Origin: Bifidobacterium dentium JCM 1195 = DSM 20436
GTDB taxonomy: Bacteria; Actinomycetota; Actinomycetes; Actinomycetales; Bifidobacteriaceae
NCBI RefSeq assembly: GCF_001042595.1
Contig: NZ_AP012326.1
Location: 434,001 to 498,000, forward strand
Length of the DNA: 64,000 bases
Direction of reading: 5' to 3'
In this document: positions 11,001 to 51,096 of the stretch, piece by piece
How positions within the stretch are numbered: the stretch's first letter is position 1
How the letters are laid out: every line of letters begins with the position of its first letter
The notes under the pieces: generated by a model
What the model saw: only the letters and a program-made list of their open reading frames with translations
Told to the model about the DNA's origin: nothing
Database searches by the model: none
Position numbers and translations under genes: made by a program

Positions 11001-14000
11001 TCGTGATCCCGCTCAACGTCAACGGCACCGAAGCCGGTCTGTTCCCGGTCGTGGACCGCGACCGCCTGCCGGAACATGTGTATCGCATGCTCGCCGACAC
11101 CGCAGGCATCGGCAACATCGCCATCACCGGCGACAAGCTCACCGCCATGCCGACGATCGAACGAATGGAAGACGCCGCCGACCGTCCGTTCGGCGAAGCG
11201 CACACGCAGTATACGTTGTCGGCCAACCTCGGCTTCGACCATGAAGCGGCCACCGGTGGTGCGCTGCCGAACGACCTTGTGCCGTCCCGCATCGCCCCCG
11301 ATGCGCTTGTCGGGCCGGCATGGCCGGCCATCTATGCGGCCCTCGGTTCCGTATATGTCAAGGGCTTCCCGGTCATCGAAGGCCTGCTCAACGCCGTGCA
11401 TCTCGACCATCTTGTGGAACTCGAAGTGAACGAGGACGAACTCCTCGAACACACCGGCGAAACGATCGCCCTCACCAGCTGGGCCGAAGACTACTTCGAG
11501 TCCGCTTCCGGACGTGTCGTGACCATCCACGTCACCCACACCGCCGAAGACGGCACCCTGCTGGCCAATGAAACCGAGCGTTTCGCCATCCGCGGCCGCG
11601 CATACTCCGACGCATTGCCGCCGGAAGCGCCGGATTACGGCGGGCTCGATGCCGAAATCGAAAGCACCCCGCGTCGTCTGCTACGCCGTGTCACGGTGAC
11701 CGCCCCGCACGAGATGACCGCCTTCGCGCGCACCTCCGGCGACTTCAATCCGATTCACACCTCCCATCGCGGCGCCGCAGTCTCCGGCTTGACGGCCCCG
11801 CTGGTACACGGCATGTGGCTGTCCGCGACCGCGCAGTACGCGGTGCAGGCGCTCGACGACAAGGGCGCACATTATGAGATCGCCGGCTGGACCTACAACA
11901 TGTACGGCATGGTGCAGCTTGACGACGAAGTGGAAATCTCCATTGAGCGTGTGGGTCGTGTGGCCCACTCAGGCATGGTGCTGGAAGTGACCAGCCGCAT
12001 CGACGGCAACATCGTCTCCCGCGCGACCGCCATCGTGCGCGCGCCGAAGTCCGCCTTCGTCTACCCCGGTCAGGGCATCCAGAAGCAGGGCATGGTGCTC
12101 GATGAGCGTGCCAAGTCCGCTGCCGCCCGCGACGTATGGGAGCGTGCGGACAAGCTCACCCGCAGCAGGCTCGGCTTCTCGATTCTCGCCGTCGTACGCG
12201 ATAATCCGAAGGAGCTGACCGCCAACGGCGTAACCTACCGTCATCCGGAAGGTCTGCTCAACCTTACCCAGTTCACGCAGGTGGCGCTCGCCACCGTGGC
12301 CTTTGCCCAGACCGCGCGTCTGCGCGAAGCCGGTGCCGATATCTGGCCGGCCTATTTCGCCGGTCATTCGCTGGGCGAATACAATGCGCTGAGCTCCTTT
12401 GCGAACGTGATCCCGCTGGAAACCGTGCTTGAGCTCGTGTTCCACCGTGGTTCTACCATGCACCATCTCATTCCTCGCGATGAGAAGGGCCGTTCCAACT
12501 ACCGCATGGGTGCGCTTCGCCCGAATCAGTTCGGCGTGGGCGACGACGGCGTGCGTGAGTACGTCGAGTCCATCGCGAAGGCCTCGGGTGAGTTCCTTGA
12601 GATCGTGAACTACAACCTTGCCGGACAGCAGTATGCCGTGGCCGGCACCATCGCGGGCTTGAAGGCACTGCAGGCCGATGCCGCCCGCCGCGTCGCCGAA
12701 TGTGGAGGCAAGCCGGCGTTCATGCTGGTGCCGGGCATCGACGTGCCGTTCCATTCCACGCTGTTGCGCAAGGGCGTGCCGGAATTCCGCGACAAGCTCG
12801 ACGCATTGCTGCCGGCGCATATCGACTATCGCGGCCGCTTGGTCGGTCGCTATATCCCGAATCTGGTGGCTGCCCCGTTCGCGATGACGAAGGAATTCGC
12901 GGCCAGGATTCTCGAGGTTGTACCATCCGAACGGATCAAGGCCGCGCTCGACGATCCGCAGGTGTGGGATTCCTACGCCGAGGACGATCAGAAGCTCGGC
13001 CGACTGCTGCTCACCGAGCTGCTGTCGTGGCAGTTCGCTTCGCCGGTACGTTGGATCGAGACGCAGGCCCTGCTGTTCTCTTCCGTGGAGCAGGGCGGTT
13101 GCGGTATCGAGGAATATGTTGAGGTCGGTCTCGGCAATGCCCCGACGCTTGCCAATCTTGGTGCCAAGACCCTGCGACTGCCGCAGTTCTCGGGTCGTGA
13201 CGTGACCGTCTATAACGTCGGTCGCGATGAGGGCCGCGTATACATGACCGATTCCGATTCGCTCGTTGCGCAGGATGATGCCGACGATTCCGCTGTTGCC
13301 GAGGCGGTCGTACAGACGGCCGCGCAGGCTGCCACTCAGGATGCTTCCCCGGCTCAGCCTGCCGCCGCACCTGCATCGGTTGCAGCCGCTCCGTCGGCTC
13401 CCGCCGGTGCCCCGTCCGGTGCGAACGTCGCCGACATGCCGTTCAAGGCGGCCGACGCCATCGCCATGTTGCTGGCCTATTCCGCCAAGGTGCGCCCGGA
13501 CCAAATCGGCGATTCCGATACCACCGACACCCTGACCAATGGCGTTTCCTCTCGCCGTAACCAGTTGCTTATGGACATCAGCTCCGAACTGGGAGTGGCT
13601 TCGGTCGACGGTGCCGCCGAGGCGACCGTCAAGGCGCTGAGCGCTCTGGTGAACAAAGTGGCGCCGAACTATAAGGCTTTCGGGCCGGTACTTGCCGACA
13701 TCGTACGCGACCGTGTCCGTGGCCTGTTCGGCGCGGCCGGTGTAAAGCTCGGTCAGATCACCAAGCGTGTGACCGACACCTGGCAACTCGGCGAAGGATG
13801 GGCCAGCCATGTGGTGGCCGCTCTCGTGCTCGAGACCCGCGAGGGTGCCAGTTCGCGCGGCGGTGATCTTGCCTCGCTGACGGCCGCCGCGGCTTCCAAT
13901 GCCGCCGAGGCCAATGCGCTGATCGATGCGGCCGTGCAGAAGGTCGCCTCCGACAGGGGTGTGGCTGTGTCCATGCCGAGCGCCGGTGGTGCGTCCGGTG

Positions 14001-30947: not shown

Positions 30948-31052
30948 GCCGATATGACGCGATTTTCCGGTTGATTGACGCATTTGCGGGTGTTGCCGCA
31001 AGGGAATCCATGGCGTAATGGGTCTTGTAGCCATACAAGAGAGGAGAACGTC

Positions 31053-32321
31053 ATGGCTGGTCTTAACAAGGAAATCAATTTGCCACGCGGCGTCGCGCTG
31101 GCGGTCGGTATGGTGCTTGGCTCGGGCATGCTGGGCCTGCCCGGTATCGTGGTTGCCGCGGTCGGATCCCGGATGGCGATCGCCAGCTGGCTTGCCGTCA
31201 TCCTGGCCATGGTTCCGATGGTCGCTATTTTCAGCAGACTCGGCAGTCGCTACACTACGGCCGCCGGGCTTACCGAGTACGCTCGCATCGCTTTCGGCCC
31301 TTGGGCCGCGGATGCGACCTCCGTTCTTTTGTGGGGAACGTATGCGATTGGCATTCCGGCATTGGCATGGGTCGGCGGCGCCTACGTGTGCAGCCTGTTC
31401 GATATTGCGCAATATCCATGGGGACTCGTATGCGCGTTGATGATTCTGCTGGCGTCCACCATCGTCAATCTGCTTGGTACACGCCTGACGGCATTGATCA
31501 ATACCATCTCGCTGTGGATGATTGCGGCACTGATCTGCATATTGGTCGGCACGCATCTTGATTTGCTGGTCCTCGGCATCCGCGAGCTGCCGTCGATCAC
31601 GACCGGATTCGACCTGTCCGGCCTGATTTCCGGAGCGGGTCTGATCGTCTGGGCGTTTCTCGGCTGGGAGAACATGTCCTTCAGCGCGGAGGAGTTTCGC
31701 AACCCCAAACGCAACATTCCAATGACCTATTGGATCAGTTTCGCAGTGGTATCCGCGCTGTATTTGGCGCTGGCGTTCGTGGTCAACGGTGCTGAAATCG
31801 CCGGTACGCACATCACAGGCGCTTCCGGCCTGACCTCGCTGCTGCCCGATGATTGGAAAGCCGTGATCACGGTGCTCATCGTCATCGCCATTCTCGCCAA
31901 CGCGAACTCATGGGTTCTGGGAGCAAGCCGGCTCACCTTCTCGGCTGGGCGCAACGGACTGCTTCCCGGCATCTTTACGAAGACCAACCGCAATGGCGTG
32001 CCCGTCAATGCGCTGATCGCCATGCAGGTCATCTATACGGGCGTTATCGTCATCGCCGGGCTTCTGCATCTCAAGGCCGATAACCTGGTGGGCATCGTCA
32101 GCCAGGATTTCATCGTGCTGTACGTCGTGTCCATCATCGCATTCATCATCAGCGAGCGGAACGAAGGCGGGGTGTCAGGTGCCTCCTGGTTGATCGCATT
32201 GCTGTCGCTGGGCCTATGCGGCATTATCCTGACCGGCTTCACATGGTGGATCCTGTATCCGACGATGCTGGTGGCGGTGGGTGCCGCGGTTCATCGTCGC
32301 CGCATGCGACGGGGAAAATGA
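31053..32321 (+). CDS. APC-superfamily amino acid transporter (YjeH-like)
   Basis: About 422 residues with 11-12 hydrophobic helices. The glycine-rich first-helix signature is GVALAVGMVLGSGMLGLPGIV, and FLGWENMSFSAEEFRNPKRNIP is the conserved loop after helix 6. The pattern resembles YjeH-type amino acid exporters more than amino acid/polyamine importers, but substrate and direction cannot be fixed. The ATG at 31053 follows GAGGAG; upstream in-frame starts lack a ribosome site. It follows the MocR gene by 105 bases on the same strand and may be co-transcribed with it. It converges with the GlxA/AraC-type regulator gene. Confidence 0.88.
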   Translation: MAGLNKEINLPRGVALAVGMVLGSGMLGLPGIVVAAVGSRMAIASWLAVILAMVPMVAIFSRLGSRYTTAAGLTEYARIAFGPWAADATSVLLWGTYAIGIPALAWVGGAYVCSLFDIAQYPWGLVCALMILLASTIVNLLGTRLTALINTISLWMIAALICILVGTHLDLLVLGIRELPSITTGFDLSGLISGAGLIVWAFLGWENMSFSAEEFRNPKRNIPMTYWISFAVVSALYLALAFVVNGAEIAGTHITGASGLTSLLPDDWKAVITVLIVIAILANANSWVLGASRLTFSAGRNGLLPGIFTKTNRNGVPVNALIAMQVIYTGVIVIAGLLHLKADNLVGIVSQDFIVLYVVSIIAFIISERNEGGVSGASWLIALLSLGLCGIILTGFTWWILYPTMLVAVGAAVHRRRMRRGK

Positions 32322-32363
32322 CGATGGGCCGTCGGAAGGCTTAAGAACAAGGCGTTTTCGGGG

Positions 32364-33347
32364 CTATTGACGGAGTGTGCCGTTTGGTGGGTTTCCTGAG
32401 GAATCCGCCAAACGGCTCCGTTCGTTTCGGAGTTGGAATTGGTGGGGCGTCATGCCGAAAAGCCGGAGAAAATGACGTCTCATAAGGTCGGTATCCGAAA
32501 AACCGACGGCATGGGCAATCGAATCGATGCGCATGGTCGTGGATATGAGAAGAGACTGCGCCATAAGAAGTCGTTCGCGCAATATCCATTGATGGGGAGT
32601 GGTTCCCCATTCCTTGAATTTTCGTTCCAAGGTCCTTACGGACATTCCCAATGCCGCGGCGAGGTCGCCTGCTTTCCATGGATGCTCCGGATGCGCGAGG
32701 AACAGCATGCGTAGGTGGTCCAGATCGCTGTCGAACCGGTGTTGTGACGAAGAGGTGGCATCGGCGATCTGGATATGGCTTCCGCTGCGTTCCAGCGTCA
32801 CCGCCATCTGTTTGGATACCGATTCGGCGATCGCGTCGCCGAGTAGTTGACGGGTGATGCTGAGACATGCATCCGTTCCCGCACTGGCGCCTGCGGAGGT
32901 CCAGATGTTGTCTTGCTGTACGTACAGGACATTGTGCCTCACATTGATTGCGGGGTACTGCTCGCCGAGTTGTTCGCAGTACTGCCAGTGGGTGGTGGCG
33001 ATCCTACCGTCAAGCATGCCACAGGACGCCAGCCAGAAGGCTCCGGTGCATAGCGAGACCAATGTGGTTCCCTGGCTGTGCGCATGCTGAAGGAGCGTGA
33101 TTTCCTGCTCTCTCGCTTGGGGGACCGTGCCGATTTCGAATGAGGAAAACCCCGGAATCACCAGAATCGAGCAACAACGGCAGGCCTCATCGAATGCGCA
33201 TGTGGGTTGGGATCCGGTTATGCAACCGGATTCCATGGGCACGATGAAGACCTTGCCGTTCTCGTTCAGCGCCAAGGAAAACACTTCAAGGGCGGAGGCC
33301 ATGTCGAAAGGCCTGGTGCGTCGCCACATAAGAATTCCCACATTCAT
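32364..33347 (-). CDS. GlxA-family transcriptional regulator (DJ-1/PfpI plus AraC domains)
   Basis: 327 residues. The N-terminal half (about 1-180) is a DJ-1/PfpI-like class I glutamine amidotransferase fold. It includes the elbow cysteine in SLCTGAFWLASCGMLDGR. The C-terminal AraC-type DNA-binding domain (about 225-315) has the two helix-turn-helix motifs AAALGMSVRTLERKFKEW and AHAVGFSDTDLMRRHF. Such proteins usually act as activators responding to small nitrogenous ligands. The ligand here is unknown. The Shine-Dalgarno before 33347 is weak. Its 3' end converges on the APC transporter gene with a 42-base gap. Confidence 0.88.
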   Translation of the reverse strand: MNVGILMWRRTRPFDMASALEVFSLALNENGKVFIVPMESGCITGSQPTCAFDEACRCCSILVIPGFSSFEIGTVPQAREQEITLLQHAHSQGTTLVSLCTGAFWLASCGMLDGRIATTHWQYCEQLGEQYPAINVRHNVLYVQQDNIWTSAGASAGTDACLSITRQLLGDAIAESVSKQMAVTLERSGSHIQIADATSSSQHRFDSDLDHLRMLFLAHPEHPWKAGDLAAALGMSVRTLERKFKEWGTTPHQWILRERLLMAQSLLISTTMRIDSIAHAVGFSDTDLMRRHFLRLFGMTPHQFQLRNERSRLADSSGNPPNGTLRQ

Positions 33348-33553
33348 GGAACGAACGTTACGGTTCCGGGGTACGGCGTTGGTGCCGTTCCCTTTTCGGG
33401 TATGTAAAATCTCCGACCGGAATCGAGTCCACGCTTCGACCCGTCATTTCTGCGATCCGCATGGCGTTTGCCGCCTGTCCCGTGAATCTACGAGAATGAC
33501 AGACGGTCTGAATCGAAAGAAAACCGCGTAGGCGGCGAGTAAGAGGAACATTC

Positions 33554-44646: not shown

Positions 44647-46017
44647 ATGACGTCAGGGCAATGGGTGCTCCTCGCCGTTGCGGCGGTTATGGTGATCGCG
44701 GCCGTTGCGTCGGTCGCATACCGCTTCGGCCGGGCTTTCGAAGATGGCCCGGCGCCGAACGATCCAAGCACGTTCGGGGCTTCGAAGAACACATCGCTGT
44801 TCGGCCCGCGCGTGCCCGTGCAACAGACGGAGCGCCAGCTGATTGCCGTCATGCCGGAGGCGCTGATCGTCACCGACGCGCTCGCTACGGTGCAATACGT
44901 TTCGCCGGGTGCACAGCGTTTCGGCTTGATCGAAGACAGTGCGATGACGCTTGCCGAGATCCGTGACATTCTGAAGCTGGTTTCCGCGGACAGCGTGGTG
45001 CGCGAACGTGAGTTGGCGATTCCTCTCGACCGCGCCGCCCGCGCCGCCGCGAAGAATACGAACGGCAAAGGGCTGGAAGCCGGCAAGACCCTGCCCGCCG
45101 ACACCCTGTACCTGCATGTGCGCGTCGGACAGATAGCCGACGACAGTTTCGCGATTTTCATTTCCGACATGAGCGAGCAGCGTCGTTTTGAAATCATGCG
45201 CCGCGATTTCGTCACGAACGTTTCGCATGAGCTGAAGACTCCCGCAGGTGCGATTTCGCTGCTTGCCGAAACGATTGGCGACGCCGCCGACGATCCGGAT
45301 GCGGTGCGGTATTTCTCGGGCCGCATTTCGAAGGAATCCGAACGATTGACGGAATTGGTGCACCGTCTGATCGACCTGCAGAAGGCGCAGAGCGCGGCCG
45401 CGATGCTGAATGCGGAACGTCTTTCCGTGTTGCGGATCGCGCGCGAGGCGATCGGTGAGAACCAGGTGAAGGCCGAATCGAAGCGTATCGGCTTGGCTCT
45501 GTCGCTGAACGGCAGGCCGGTGCCGTTGCGTGCCGGCATGGCGGGTGACGCCACCGCATCATCAGGCGGGGAAGCGGACGTGTTCGTCGATGCCGACCAC
45601 GAAACCATCAAAACCGCCGTGAAGAACCTAGTGGAGAATGCCGTCAACTATTCCCCGATGAACACCACCGTGGCGGTCGGCATAGGGCATGAGGGCGGCA
45701 AGGTCACCATCCGTGTGGTCGATCAGGGCATCGGCATTCCGGCCCCCTCGCTCGACCGCATCTTTGAACGCTTCTACCGCGTGGATCCGGCGCGCTCGCG
45801 CGAAACCGGCGGCACGGGACTCGGTCTGGCCATCACCAAGCATTGCGTGCAGGATTGCGGCGGCACCATCACCGTGTGGTCTCGCGAAGGGGAGGGGTCC
45901 ACGTTCACCATCACGCTGCCGGAGGCCGGGGATGCGCCGGAATCTCGGGGAAATGCGGAAACCAAGACTGAAGAGAAGCATCCAAACACTACAGAGAACA
46001 CGGAGGAGAACCACTGA
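44647..46017 (+). CDS. Phosphate-sensing histidine kinase (SenX3/PhoR-like)
   Basis: 456 residues. One N-terminal transmembrane helix (about 6-25) precedes a PAS-like region (about 60-180). The dimerisation/phosphoacceptor domain has His 194 in FVTNVSHELKTPAG. The HATPase domain carries NLVENAVNYSP (N box), VVDQGIGIP (G1), FERFYRVD (F) and GGTGLGLAITKH (G2). The last 30 residues are polar and probably disordered. The gene overlaps the response-regulator gene and stands just before pstSCAB, which makes inorganic phosphate the likely cue. The start follows GGAGG. Confidence 0.92.
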   Translation: MTSGQWVLLAVAAVMVIAAVASVAYRFGRAFEDGPAPNDPSTFGASKNTSLFGPRVPVQQTERQLIAVMPEALIVTDALATVQYVSPGAQRFGLIEDSAMTLAEIRDILKLVSADSVVRERELAIPLDRAARAAAKNTNGKGLEAGKTLPADTLYLHVRVGQIADDSFAIFISDMSEQRRFEIMRRDFVTNVSHELKTPAGAISLLAETIGDAADDPDAVRYFSGRISKESERLTELVHRLIDLQKAQSAAAMLNAERLSVLRIAREAIGENQVKAESKRIGLALSLNGRPVPLRAGMAGDATASSGGEADVFVDADHETIKTAVKNLVENAVNYSPMNTTVAVGIGHEGGKVTIRVVDQGIGIPAPSLDRIFERFYRVDPARSRETGGTGLGLAITKHCVQDCGGTITVWSREGEGSTFTITLPEAGDAPESRGNAETKTEEKHPNTTENTEENH

Positions 46018-46721
46018 TGACACGTATTCTGATCGTCGAAGACGAGGAATCGTATCGAGAACCGCTGGTCTACCAGCCCACTCGCGAAGGCTATGACGTG
46101 TCCGCCGCAGCCACCGGCGAGGACGGGCTGGAACTGTTCACCCAGGGAGGCGTCGATCTGGTACTGCTCGACCTGATGCTTCCCGGTCTCGACGGTACCG
46201 CGCTGTGTCGCAGGATTCGTGAGCAAAGCCGTGTGCCGATCATCATGTTGACCGCCAAAAGCGCGGAAATCGACAAGGTGGTCGGTCTGGAGATCGGTGC
46301 GGACGACTATGTGACCAAGCCGTACTCCTTCCGCGAACTGCTGGCCCGCGTCCGCGCGGTATTGCGCCGCAATCAGATGGTCGCCGAATCCGACAGCGCC
46401 TCCGATGATGATATTCCGCTCGTGTGCGGCGACATCTCGATGAAGATCGGCCAGCATGAGGTGAGCGTGCGCGGTGAGAACGTGTTCTTCCCGCTCAAAG
46501 AATTCGAGCTGCTGGAATATCTCATGCAGAACAAGGGTCGCGTAATGACCCGTCACCAGCTCATCGACCGCATCTGGGGTTCCGATTACGTCGGCGACAC
46601 CAAGACGCTGGATGTGCACGTCAAGCGTGTGCGTTCCAAGATCGAAGAGGATCCTGCGCACCCGAAATACCTGACCACCGTGCGTGGATTGGGATACAAG
46701 ATCGATGCCCCGATCGAGTGA
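46017..46721 (+). CDS. OmpR-family response regulator (RegX3/PhoP-like)
   Basis: 234 residues. The receiver domain has the acidic pair in ILIVEDEES, phosphoacceptor Asp 52 in LVLLDLMLPG, and the conserved Lys in DDYVTKPYS. The C-terminal winged helix contains FPLKEFELLEYLMQNKGRVMTRHQLIDRIWG and VHVKRVRSKIE. Its start overlaps the kinase stop by one base (TGATG), so the pair is translationally coupled. It likely activates the pst genes under phosphate limitation through the 11-base repeats at 46742. Confidence 0.94.
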   Translation: MTRILIVEDEESYREPLVYQPTREGYDVSAAATGEDGLELFTQGGVDLVLLDLMLPGLDGTALCRRIREQSRVPIIMLTAKSAEIDKVVGLEIGADDYVTKPYSFRELLARVRAVLRRNQMVAESDSASDDDIPLVCGDISMKIGQHEVSVRGENVFFPLKEFELLEYLMQNKGRVMTRHQLIDRIWGSDYVGDTKTLDVHVKRVRSKIEEDPAHPKYLTTVRGLGYKIDAPIE

Positions 46722-46741
46722 GGGACGAGTAGACGAATACT

Positions 46742-46763
46742 GTTCATCTACCGTTCACCGATT
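46742..46763 (+). promoter_or_regulatory. PHO box upstream of pstS
   Basis: Two direct 11-base units, GTTCATCTACC and GTTCACCGATT, start exactly 11 bases apart. This matches the actinobacterial PHO-box layout bound by PhoP-type regulators in Streptomyces (GTTCACC-type units). It lies 121 bases before the pstS start and right after the response-regulator gene. Confidence 0.7.
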
Positions 46764-46883
46764 TTGGCATCCGGCACCGCAAACGGCCAATAGGCTTGAA
46801 ATTGTCATGAAGAACGATGGCGACACCAGACAATGAACCTAGCAACGTACGCCATCAGAATGTTGACAGAGGGAAAAGAAACA

Positions 46884-48011
46884 ATGCGTAACTCCATTCT
46901 CGTACGCTCCATCGCCGCCGTGTCCGGCATCGTGATGCTGGCTTCCGTCGCGGCCTGCGGTGACAACACCGCCGCCACCGATTCCTCCTCGGCCAAGTCC
47001 AGCACCACGACCGAAGCCGTGTCCGGCAACTTCCAGGGTGCAGGCGCCTCCTCCCAGCAGGCAGCCGTCGAGGCTTGGATCGCCGGCTTCCAGGGCACCA
47101 ATCCGGACGCCAAGGTCGCCTACAACCCGTCCGGCTCCGGCGCAGGCGTCTCCACCTTCCTGACCGGCGCCACCGCATGGGCCGGCTCCGATGCCGCCCT
47201 GAGCGATGACGAGGTCGAGCAGTCCAAGAGCGTGTGCGCTTCCGGCAATGCCTTCGACATTCCGGTCTACATCTCCCCGATCGCCGTCGTGTTCAACCTC
47301 AACGGCATTTCCGGCAAGGGCAAGACCCTGAACATGGACGCCGAGACCATCGCCAAGATCTTCGACGGCAAGATCACCAAGTGGAACGATGACGCCATCA
47401 AGCAGCAGAACCCGAAGGTCGACCTGCCTGATCTCGACATCACCGTCGTGCACCGTTCCGACAAGTCCGGCACCACCAAGAACTTCCTGAGCTACGTCAA
47501 GGATGCCGCCGGCGACGCCTGGAGCTACGAGCTTGGCGAGAACTGGCCGAACGAGGTCGGCCAGGGCGCCAAGGGCACCTCCGGTGTGATTTCCACCGTG
47601 CAGCAGGCCGACGGCACCATCGGCTATGCCGATGCCTCCCAGGCCGGTGAGCTCGGCACCGTGGCAGTGAAGGTCGGCGACGATTACGTGCCGTTCTCCG
47701 CCGAAGCCGCCGCCAAGGTCGTGGATGCCTCCCCGCTCGACGAGTCCGCCACCGGCGACAACCGCGTGGTCGTCAAGCTCGACCACAACACCACCGAAAA
47801 GGGTGCCTACCCGATCGTGCTGGTCTCCTATGATGTCGCCTGCCCGGCATACAAGGACGCCAACACCGCCAAGTTCGTCAAGTCCTGGCTCACCTATGTG
47901 GTCAGCGACGAAGGCCAGCAGACCGCTGCCTCCGCAGCAGGTTCCGCCCCGCTGTCCGACACCATGCGCCAGAAGGTCCTCAAGTCCATCGACGCCATCG
48001 AGACCAAGTGA
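46884..48011 (+). CDS. pstS: Phosphate ABC transporter substrate-binding lipoprotein
   Basis: About 375 residues. The lipoprotein signal peptide ends with the lipobox VAAC (Cys 25), so it is anchored to the outer face of the membrane. A Ser/Thr linker precedes the PstS domain. Phosphate-binding segments are FQGAGASSQQAAVEAW, YNPSGSGAGVSTF and HRSDKSGTTKNF. The start at 46884 follows a purine-rich AGAGGGAAAAG; the earlier in-frame ATG at 46833 would disrupt the signal peptide. A stable hairpin separates it from pstC, which would allow more PstS than membrane subunits. Confidence 0.95.
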   Translation: MRNSILVRSIAAVSGIVMLASVAACGDNTAATDSSSAKSSTTTEAVSGNFQGAGASSQQAAVEAWIAGFQGTNPDAKVAYNPSGSGAGVSTFLTGATAWAGSDAALSDDEVEQSKSVCASGNAFDIPVYISPIAVVFNLNGISGKGKTLNMDAETIAKIFDGKITKWNDDAIKQQNPKVDLPDLDITVVHRSDKSGTTKNFLSYVKDAAGDAWSYELGENWPNEVGQGAKGTSGVISTVQQADGTIGYADASQAGELGTVAVKVGDDYVPFSAEAAAKVVDASPLDESATGDNRVVVKLDHNTTEKGAYPIVLVSYDVACPAYKDANTAKFVKSWLTYVVSDEGQQTAASAAGSAPLSDTMRQKVLKSIDAIETK

Positions 48012-48158: not shown

Positions 48159-49112
48159 GTGAGTTCGCAAAGCAAAACGGCTCAGCAGCCGGTAAGCGGC
48201 AAGAACGCGGATAAGGTGTTCAAGGGCGTGGCCTACGCCTGCGGCATCCTGATCCTCGTGGTGCTCGCCGCCGTCGCGCTGTTCCTGCTGTTCCGTGCGT
48301 GGCCGCTGATCGGCGGCGACCAGAAGGCCAACAGCGCCACCATCAGCAACTTCACCGGCGGCAAGGCCACAAACTTCTGGGGCTACGTCGGACCGCTGCT
48401 GTTCGGTACCGTACTGATCTCCGCCCTGGCACTGCTGATTTCCTTCTTCGTGTCGGTCGGCATCGCACTGTTCATCTCGCATTACGCACCCAAGAAGCTC
48501 GCTACGGCGTTGAGCTATGTGGTCGATCTGCTCGCCGCGATCCCGTCCGTGATCTACGGCCTGTGGGGCGGTCTGATTCTGGTGCCGGCCATCTACCCGT
48601 TCTGGAACTGGGTGGCCAAATATCTTGGCTGAATCCCGCTGTTCCAAGGCCCGGCCGCCAATCCTTCCCGTACCGTCGCCACTGTGGCCGTGGTGCTCGC
48701 CGTCATGATTCTGCCGATCATCACCTCCATGTCGCGAGACATCTTCATGCAGACCCCGCGTCTGCAGGAGGAGGCCGCTCTTGCGCTTGGCGCCACCAAG
48801 TGGGAGATGGTCAAGCTCGCCGTGCTGCCGTTCGGCAAGTCGGGTGTTGTTTCCGCCTCCATGCTGGGCCTGGGACGTGCGCTCGGTGAGACGATGGCCG
48901 TGCTCATGATTCTTTCCCCGGGGCTCAACTACTCCATCAAGCTGTTGCAGGCCTCGCAGAACCAGACGATTGCCGCGAACATCGCCGCCCAGTATCCGGA
49001 GGCCAACGATCTTGGCGTTTCCGTGCTGATCGGCACCGGCCTGGTCCTGTTCCTGATTACCTTCGTGGTGAACTTCATCGCCCGTAAGCTCACCGAGAAA
49101 GCGAGTGCATGA
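48159..49112 (+). pseudogene. pstC: Phosphate ABC transporter permease PstC, interrupted by an in-frame stop
   Basis: The frame starts at GTG 48159 with AAGGAG upstream and encodes an intact N-terminus with several membrane helices. At 48630-48632 a TGA stops it after residue 157 (WNWVAKYLG). The same frame then continues for 160 residues with good PstC sequence (IPLFQGPAANPSRTVAT, then ATKWEMVKLAVLPFGKSGVVSASMLGLGRALGETMAV, the EAA loop). No base is gained or lost. A change of TGG (Trp) to TGA explains it, but a sequencing error or read-through is possible. If real, the membrane channel is truncated before the loop that contacts PstB. The stop of the intact frame overlaps the pstA start. Confidence 0.9.
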
Positions 49113-50107
49113 TGTCTGCCGCGCAAAACAACGCTTCGCCGATGGACGGCGCTCCCGTCATCGACTTCGACAAGTTCAAGCCGACCCGCTCCTTCACCGC
49201 CGCACGCAAGCGCAAGGATCTGGTGATGAGGGTCCTCATCGCCCTCGCTTTCATCGTGGCCCTGATTCCGCTGATCTCGGTGCTGCTGACCACCATCATC
49301 AACGGCGTCAAGCGACTGAACCTGAACTTCCTGAGCTATAACATGACCGGCGTGGTCGGCGGCAATCCTACCCCGTCCGGCGGTTACGGCGGCATCCTGC
49401 ACGCCATCATCGGCACGCTGGAGATCACGTTCGGCGCCATGGTCATCTCCATCCCGATCGGCCTGATGTGCGCCGTGTATCTGGTGGAATACTCCAACCG
49501 TGGCAAGCTCGCCCGCGTGATCACCCTGCTCGTCGACGTGATGAGCGGCATTCCGTCCATCGTGGCAGGCCTGTTCGCCTTTTCGATGTTCACGATCCTG
49601 ATCGGACCGGGCACCATCAACGGTTTCGAAGGTTCCGTGGCTCTCTCGCTGCTGATGCTGCCGACCGTGGTCAAGTCCTCCGAAGAGATGCTCAAGATCG
49701 TGCCGCACGATCTGCGTGAGGCCTCCTATGCGTTGGGTGTCACCAAGCAACGTACGATCACGAAGATTGTGTTGCGTACCGCATTGCCGGGCATCGTTTC
49801 CGGCGCGATCCTCGCCGTCGCGCGAGTGATCGGCGAAACCGCGCCGTTGCTGATGACCGCAGGCTACATCGCCTCCACGAACGTCAACCTCTTCTCCGGC
49901 CAGATGACCACCCTTCCGGTGTACGTCTACCAGGAATATTCCAAGCTCAACGCGAACTGCCCGGCTTCCGCCGACGCCTCGTGCGTGACCACCATCCCGA
50001 TGGAACGTGCCTGGGCCGCCGCTCTCGTGCTGATCCTCATCGTGCTCATCCTCAACCTCATCGGACGTCTTGTGGCGAAGGTCTTCGCCGTCAAGTCGGA
50101 GCGCTGA
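49109..50107 (+). CDS. pstA: Phosphate ABC transporter permease PstA
   Basis: 332 residues (331 if the second of two adjacent ATGs at 49109/49112 is used). Six hydrophobic helices are present. The ABC-permease EAA loop is EEMLKIVPHDLREASYALGVTKQRTITKIVLRTALPGIVSG, followed by GETAPLLMTAG. The cytoplasmic N-terminus is about 45 residues. The start overlaps the pstC stop, so translation of pstA may suffer from the premature stop in pstC unless ribosomes reinitiate. It is followed at 71 bases by pstB. Confidence 0.95.
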   Translation: MMSAAQNNASPMDGAPVIDFDKFKPTRSFTAARKRKDLVMRVLIALAFIVALIPLISVLLTTIINGVKRLNLNFLSYNMTGVVGGNPTPSGGYGGILHAIIGTLEITFGAMVISIPIGLMCAVYLVEYSNRGKLARVITLLVDVMSGIPSIVAGLFAFSMFTILIGPGTINGFEGSVALSLLMLPTVVKSSEEMLKIVPHDLREASYALGVTKQRTITKIVLRTALPGIVSGAILAVARVIGETAPLLMTAGYIASTNVNLFSGQMTTLPVYVYQEYSKLNANCPASADASCVTTIPMERAWAAALVLILIVLILNLIGRLVAKVFAVKSER

Positions 50108-50178: not shown

Positions 50179-50958
50179 ATGGGACAACGTATTGATGTCA
50201 ATCATCTGAACATCTACTACGGCGACTTCCTGGCCGTGGAAGACGTGAACATCAACATCGAAGCCAACAAGGTCACCGCATTCATCGGGCCTTCCGGATG
50301 TGGCAAGTCCACCGTGCTGCGCACGCTCGACCGCATGCACGAGATCATCCCGGGCGCTCACTGCGAAGGTGAGGTGCTGCTCGAAGGCAAGAACCTGTAC
50401 GACAAGGACATCGACCCGGTGGCGGTGCGCCGTGATGTCGGCATGGTGTTCCAGCGTGCGAATCCGTTCCCGACCATGTCGATTCGTGAGAACGTGCTTG
50501 CCGGCGTGAGGCTCAACAACCGCAAGATCTCGAAGTCCGACGCGGACGATCTGGTCGAGTGGGCCTTGCGTGGCGCCAACCTGTGGAACGAAGTCAAGGA
50601 TCGCCTTGACAATCCGGGCATCGGTCTGTCCGGTGGTCAGCAGCAGAGGCTTTGCATCGCCCGTGCCGTGGCAGTGCATCCGCAAGTGCTGCTTATGGAT
50701 GAGCCGTGCTCCGCACTCGATCCGATTTCGACCCTGGCTGTCGAGGATCTGATCAACGAGCTGAAGAACGACTACACCATCGTGATCGTGACGCACAACA
50801 TGCAGCAGGCCGCCCGTATCGCCGACTACACCGCCTTCTTCAACCTGAAGGCCGTCGGTCAGCCGGGTCATCTCGAGTACTTCACCGATACCACCACGAT
50901 GTTCAACAACCCGCAGAACGAAGAGGCCGAACGCTACGTTTCGGGACGTTTCGGCTGA
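50179..50958 (+). CDS. pstB: Phosphate ABC transporter ATP-binding protein PstB
   Basis: 259 residues. Walker A is GPSGCGKST, the Q-loop is [10 protein letters not shown], and the signature [17 protein letters not shown] is followed by Walker [14 protein letters not shown] and the switch His in VTHNM. It powers phosphate import through PstC/PstA. AAGGAA precedes the ATG. The last codons overlap the left arm of a hairpin and the first copy of a 31-base direct repeat. No phoU follows. Confidence 0.97.
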
Positions 50959-50976
50959 TCGGCAAAGCCAATCTGC
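50946..50976. repeat. 31-base direct repeat, copy 1 (overlaps the pstB end)
   Basis: It begins ACGTTTCGGCTGATC and ends AGCCAATCTGC, and is identical to 51066-51096. It includes the last codons and stop of pstB. ACGTTTCGGC here pairs with GCCGAAACGT at 50975-50984, giving a perfect 10-base stem that probably terminates the pst transcript. Confidence 0.9.
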
Positions 50977-51065: not shown

Positions 51066-51096
51066 ACGTTTCGGCTGATCGGCAAAGCCAATCTGC
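51066..51096. repeat. 31-base direct repeat, copy 2
   Basis: An exact copy of 50946-50976 placed 120 bases downstream. It lacks the right hairpin arm of copy 1 and runs directly into another hairpin. Confidence 0.9.

What the first reader, a model, noticed from the sequence alone, without database searches (positions are those of the whole stretch)
48159..49112. pstC carries an in-frame TGA at codon 158 while the rest of the pst operon is intact
The frame before and after 48630-48632 is the same and both halves are typical PstC, so a single TGG-to-TGA change (Trp, in KYLG-W-IPLF) is the simplest reading. A strain without a working high-affinity phosphate importer would depend on another route. 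Other options are a mixed population, a base-calling error, or UGA read-through. The downstream pstA overlaps the intact pstC stop, so pstA and pstB expression could fall as well. The kinase/regulator pair and PHO box look intact, making this a recent event.
Basis: partly seen in the sequence, partly recalled or inferred. Interest (0 to 1): 0.8.

Follow-up and report, generated by a model that had tools for sequence, protein, structure and literature searches.

The report
Strain-private stop in phosphate importer gene
In this dental Bifidobacterium genome the gene for one membrane part of the phosphate importer is cut short by a stop that none of the relatives examined has, and the importer's control gene also carries a private change; it looks like loss in one strain (or a sequence error) and leaves open how the strain takes up phosphate.

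Summary
pstC (48159-49112) has one in-frame TGA at 48630-48632 and both halves are PstC. The host is one contig of 2,635,669 bases, the published length of Bifidobacterium dentium JCM 1195T (PMC4392159). Of 110 alignment rows covering the codon, 104 read TGG, 5 another sense codon, only the window a stop. Of 111 Bifidobacterium genomes with pstC, 106 are open; the others are this stop, three frameshifts and one contig break. A metagenome protein identical outside a 13-residue gap has Trp there, so the stop is not fixed in the species. Nothing suggests recoding or restart. No Pit, Na/Pi cotransporter or second PstS was found, so Pst is the only phosphate importer recognised. Best reading: strain-private loss of Pst, with a second likely lesion in the same pathway; a Sanger consensus error is the main rival and could not be excluded. 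Interest modest.

The parts
48159..49112 (+). pstC, interrupted; GTG start with AAGGAG upstream
48630..48632 (+). in-frame TGA at codon 158; sense codon in all other rows
46017..46721 (+). PhoP/RegX3-type response regulator (open)
46077..46079 (+). codon 21 of the regulator, Pro; Leu in 54 and Phe in 3 of 57 rows
44647..46017 (+). PhoR/SenX3-type sensor kinase, open, no private change at conserved columns in the screen
46742..46759 (+). PHO-box-like direct repeat GTTCATC-NNNN-GTTCACC upstream of pstS
   Evidence: conserved in 6 of 6 relatives except one spacer base; regulator binding not tested
46884..48011 (+). pstS, open
49109..50107 (+). pstA, open, start overlaps the natural pstC stop
50179..50958 (+). 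pstB, open

Best explanation
A strain-private nonsense allele of pstC in the sequenced culture of B. dentium JCM 1195T. Translation ends after residue 157, leaving about three membrane segments and removing the half with the loop that should contact the ATPase PstB, so the Pst importer is probably dead or nearly so, and expression of the translationally coupled pstA may fall. The adjacent PHO response regulator carries a private Leu-to-Pro change in the first receiver helix, so the whole PHO response is probably weakened as well. The simplest history is loss of a high-affinity phosphate system in a strain kept in phosphate-rich medium; alternatively one PHO lesion favoured the second. Shown: the stop, its privacy in the sets examined, the second private change, absence of the importer families searched. 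Inferred: loss of function, order of events, cause.
For: Stop found only in the window among 110 rows and in no other of 111 genus genomes inside the aligned protein; P0123 has Trp and is otherwise identical outside a 13-residue gap; no other conserved gene interrupted in the compared window; stop and L21P are the two most radical of 122 private changes at 11,858 conserved columns in 35 window genes; normal tRNA-Trp and TGA used as a stop in 23 of 33 window genes.
Against: No reads; the published error bound (<1 per 10,000) allows errors. No other phosphate importer was recognised, which makes a true null harder to live with. That both lesions fall in PHO genes is weak: these hold 14.3% of the columns. 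The three other genomes with frameshifted pstC (G018, G035, G085) show no PHO4 match either, so pstC lesions in deposits may partly be sequence errors. P0242 has two changes of its own in the regulator, so L21P is not the only oddity in this gene.
Confidence: 0.58

Rival explanations
1. Consensus error: the TGA (and perhaps the Pro codon of the regulator) is a mistake in the finished Sanger assembly and the strain has an intact pstC.
For: 9.3-fold Sanger coverage with a stated error rate below 1 per 10,000, which allows up to about six errors in 64 kb; Pst is the only importer recognised; the metagenome witness has Trp.
Against: Finished sequence with resequencing of weak regions; no other conserved gene of the compared window is interrupted. 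Missense errors could not be told from species divergence.
Confidence: 0.27
2. Real stop, function partly kept by everyday misreading of UGA by normal tRNA-Trp, which would insert the residue that relatives have.
For: In E. coli reporters TGA is the leakiest stop and is mostly read as Trp (PMC11126739, passages). The next base is A; only 1 of 23 natural TGA ends in the window is followed by A (P about 0.03 against 21% A), as if that context were avoided.
Against: No stimulatory fold: z-scores 0.42 and 0.26. That paper found the next base T to raise and G to lower termination efficiency and A was not singled out in what I read. No measurement in Bifidobacterium.
Confidence: 0.09
3. Two-piece PstC: the halves are made separately and assemble.
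For: The cut lies in the loop between the third and fourth hydrophobic stretches.
Against: In-frame ATG/GTG codons after the stop have no Shine-Dalgarno; none of the relatives' genes is organised so.
Confidence: 0.02
4. Recoded UGA (alternative code, selenocysteine or suppressor tRNA).
For: Only that the frame is open on both sides.
Against: TGA ends 23 of 33 window genes; among 65 BPD_transp_1 matches in the genome only pstC has an internal TGA; the tRNA-Trp found has anticodon CCA (only that locus was scanned outside the window); relatives have no Cys or stop at the codon.
Confidence: 0.01

Closest known systems
PstSCAB phosphate ABC importer, PstC subunit (TIGR02138; solved relative 9k3s_B)
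   Same: Operon order pstSCAB behind a two-component pair; both halves align to PstC.
   Different: Reading frame interrupted at codon 158; the product lacks the second half.
Strain-level nonsense pseudogene in a cultured reference strain
   Same: One private stop in an otherwise intact gene and operon.
   Different: It hits the only phosphate importer recognised in the genome and comes with a private change in the pathway's regulator.
Compensatory pst / phoR / phoB mutations in phoU mutants (E. coli, PMC4423584; M. smegmatis, PMC5741670)
   Same: Lesions in the importer and in the PHO regulator within one strain.
   Different: PhoU is open and shows no private change in 29 rows, so the published trigger is not seen.

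Membership tests
PstC (TIGR02138) | score over the family cut-off for one open protein | tested here: not met
   125.5 and 173.1 bits for the halves, cut-off 196.45
PstC (TIGR02138) | gene in a pstSCAB operon | tested here: met
   pstS, pstA, pstB identified on both sides
Strain-private pseudogene | interruption absent from relatives | tested here: met
Strain-private pseudogene | intact copy within the species | tested here: inconclusive
   one metagenome protein, P0123, with a 13-residue gap; species assigned by identity only
Strain-private pseudogene | interruption confirmed in the DNA of the strain | not testable with these tools
   no reads; Bd1 assembly not held
Strain-private pseudogene | loss of phosphate uptake | not testable with these tools
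   needs an uptake assay
Programmed readthrough / recoding | stop conserved among relatives | tested here: not met

The most novel reading that the evidence does not exclude
The stop is real and the strain lives with it: either everyday misreading of UGA as Trp supplies enough PstC, so that a leaky nonsense codon sets the dose of the only phosphate importer recognised, or bifidobacteria without Pit own an unrecognised phosphate importer on which this strain now depends and which it would reveal.
Probability: 0.15. Interest if true: 0.55.

Novelty: new member of a known kind. Interest (0 to 1): 0.3.

Why it matters
If real, the type strain of B. dentium is a natural pst mutant, perhaps also a PHO-regulator mutant, so phosphate or polyphosphate work on it would mislead about the species. 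Because no Pit, Na/Pi cotransporter or second PstS was found in its genome, it would also be a handle on how bifidobacteria without a PHO4 match (82 of 112 genus genomes) take up phosphate.

Tried and rejected
Recoding or suppressor tRNA: no support. Restart of the second half: no site. Stimulatory RNA fold: none. PhoU lesion as trigger: PhoU has no private change in 29 rows (29 of the 57 other genomes with a match were given). Other stops in the window: explained. G087's reported TGA is not inside the tblastn alignment. G004 looked like an insertion in pstC, but the two contigs abut without duplication, an assembly break. A family of proteins ending at residue 157: none among the 120 listed of 414 matches, weak because the database is clustered at 90% identity. 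A PHO-box pattern scan with 3 mismatches gave 36 matches against 6.8 expected and was not informative. Papers: no paper of the library holds both 'Bifidobacterium dentium' and 'pstC'; a search for nonsense pstC in laboratory strains gave one unrelated listing; the B. breve PhoRP paper is not held.

Full report
What is there. The window holds an open sensor kinase (44647-46017), an OmpR-type regulator (46017-46721) and pstS, pstC, pstA, pstB in this order on the + strand. pstC is interrupted by one in-frame TGA at 48630-48632; the frame is the same before and after, and the natural stop overlaps the pstA start. Both halves match TIGR02138; neither reaches its cut-off alone.

Whose genome. G000 is a single contig of 2,635,669 bases, 99.98% complete. 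The paper on B. dentium JCM 1195T gives exactly this chromosome length, 9.3-fold Sanger coverage and an error rate below 1 per 10,000 (PMC4392159, whole text). The nearest relative by pstC DNA is G051 (95%); its contig has the same length as that of B. moukalabense DSM 27321 (951,747 bases). The strain name rests on length and kinship, not on a named record.

Is the stop private? A tblastn of the protein against the 108 loci then held gave 110 rows from 107 loci that cover codon 158: 104 TGG, 2 TTC, 1 TTT, 1 GTC, 1 GGA and the window's TGA. The GGA row is the out-of-frame end of a frameshifted gene (L101) whose other row has TGG. The locus without a row, L099, begins after the codon. Rows are not independent: L002-L030 and L031-L108 overlap in species, and three loci (L062, L077, L101) give two rows. 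In the genus search 112 genomes were examined, 111 had pstC and 1 did not (G093); internal stops are reported for G000 and G087, but a tblastn alignment of G087 over residues 11-314 holds none. G018, G035 and G085 are frameshifted and G004 is split by a contig break, which leaves 106 of 111 open. Whether those frameshifts are real was not checked.

Within the species. Metagenome protein P0123 equals the window protein except for a 13-residue gap and the Trp at 158. The contig is short (2,752 bases) and the gap looks like a local fault, so this is one imperfect witness. B. moukalabense differs at 5 other residues, so P0123 is closer to the window than the sister species is.

The regulator. A screen of the six PHO genes for residues private to the window at columns more than 90% conserved found two: the PstC stop (77 rows: 74 Trp, 2 Phe, 1 Val) and L21P in the regulator (57 rows: 54 Leu, 3 Phe) (B. 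moukalabense counts twice in these rows, as L031 and L111). The closest regulator cluster, P0242, differs from the window at only three residues and has Leu21, but also Ile177 and Cys188 where the window has Met and Gly. In the solved RegX3 and MtrA the aligned residue is Leu. That Pro there disturbs the first receiver helix is inference; the Pfam receiver score is 99.3 bits against 104.3 for P0242, still far above the cut-off.

Is the pair more than chance? Thirty-five window genes were compared with six relatives: 11,858 columns identical in at least five relatives, 122 private changes, 11 of them with BLOSUM62 of -2 or less (the stop set as worst); the stop and L21P rank first and second. 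Seven of the 35 genes gave no usable column. The six PHO genes hold 1,695 columns, 14.3%, so, given the stop, the next most radical change would fall there about one time in seven. This is suggestive only, and most of the 122 are probably species-level changes that cannot be separated from strain-level ones here. The 35 genes were chosen as open ORFs, so that screen is no test for other stops; the test is, where pstC is the only in-frame interruption inside a gene.

Another importer? Not found in the own genome: PHO4/Pit, Na_Pi_cotrans, a second PBP_like_2 protein beside PstS. PhnE matches stay below the cut-off (best 92.7 of 216.7). Among 65 BPD_transp_1 matches pstC alone has an internal TGA, and one short match has a TAG; one weak PhnE match is drawn across a TGA, while the overlapping BPD_transp_1 match is open. 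Pit occurs in 30 of 112 genus genomes. A paper on polyphosphate in bifidobacteria also found pit only in some strains (PMC10329679, passages). Transporters outside these families were not searched.

How it most likely works. The 157-residue product keeps about three hydrophobic segments (17-54, 73-111, 114-149) and lacks the EAALALGATKWE stretch that should contact PstB (EAA loop, recalled). It should not form a working importer. The TGA lies 480 bases before the pstA overlap, so pstA translation may fall (inference). No in-frame restart codon has a ribosome site. In E. coli a phoU deletion leads to compensatory mutations in pstSCAB, phoR and phoB (PMC4423584, passages); in M. smegmatis phoU1/phoU2 double mutants carried independent Pst mutations, and Pst disruption activates SenX3-RegX3 constitutively (PMC5741670, passages). 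By analogy, Pst loss could favour regulator damage, or a damaged regulator could make Pst dispensable. PhoU itself has no private change in 29 rows, so the published trigger is not seen.

Leaky reading. TGA is the leakiest stop in E. coli reporters and is mostly read as Trp (PMC11126739, passages), the residue that relatives have. The next base is A, which follows only 1 of 23 natural TGA ends in the window. The tRNA-Trp found is normal and no fold stands out. Misreading could soften the effect of the stop; there is no sign of design.

Verdict. A true observation, well read, with one correction (the regulator) and one sharper question (the missing importer). Most likely a strain-private loss; a consensus error is the chief rival, and no call made here can decide between them.

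Noticed in passing
46719-46883: Between regulator and pstS the window has CATC where relatives have TTTT-like letters just after the PHO-box-like repeat, and one extra A between the GGGAAAAG stretch and the pstS ATG that 6 of 6 relatives lack.
   Followed up: no
50946-50976 and 51066-51096: The last bases of pstB and the 31 bases around its stop are repeated exactly about 120 bases downstream.
   Followed up: no
about 31021-33474: No counterpart in the B. moukalabense region: a stretch of about 2.4 kb with two long ORFs (30975-32321 +, 32364-33347 -).
   Followed up: no
L152:1129-3200 (G000:C1 about 615.2-617.2 kb): phoU lies away from pst, divergent from a second open SenX3-like sensor kinase with no response regulator beside it in the 10 kb read; two mild private changes in that kinase.
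   Followed up: partly
L127, L128, L130; L125/L126: pstC frameshifted in G035, G018 and G085, and cut by a contig break at codon 159/160 in G004; the G035 shift and the G004 break lie near the window's stop.
   Followed up: partly
G000:C1:2559417-2559614: A short BPD_transp_1 match with an internal TAG, perhaps a second broken transporter gene.
   Followed up: no
P0242: A regulator very likely from the same species has two changes of its own (Ile177, Cys188), which may be noise or further regulator variation.
   Followed up: no
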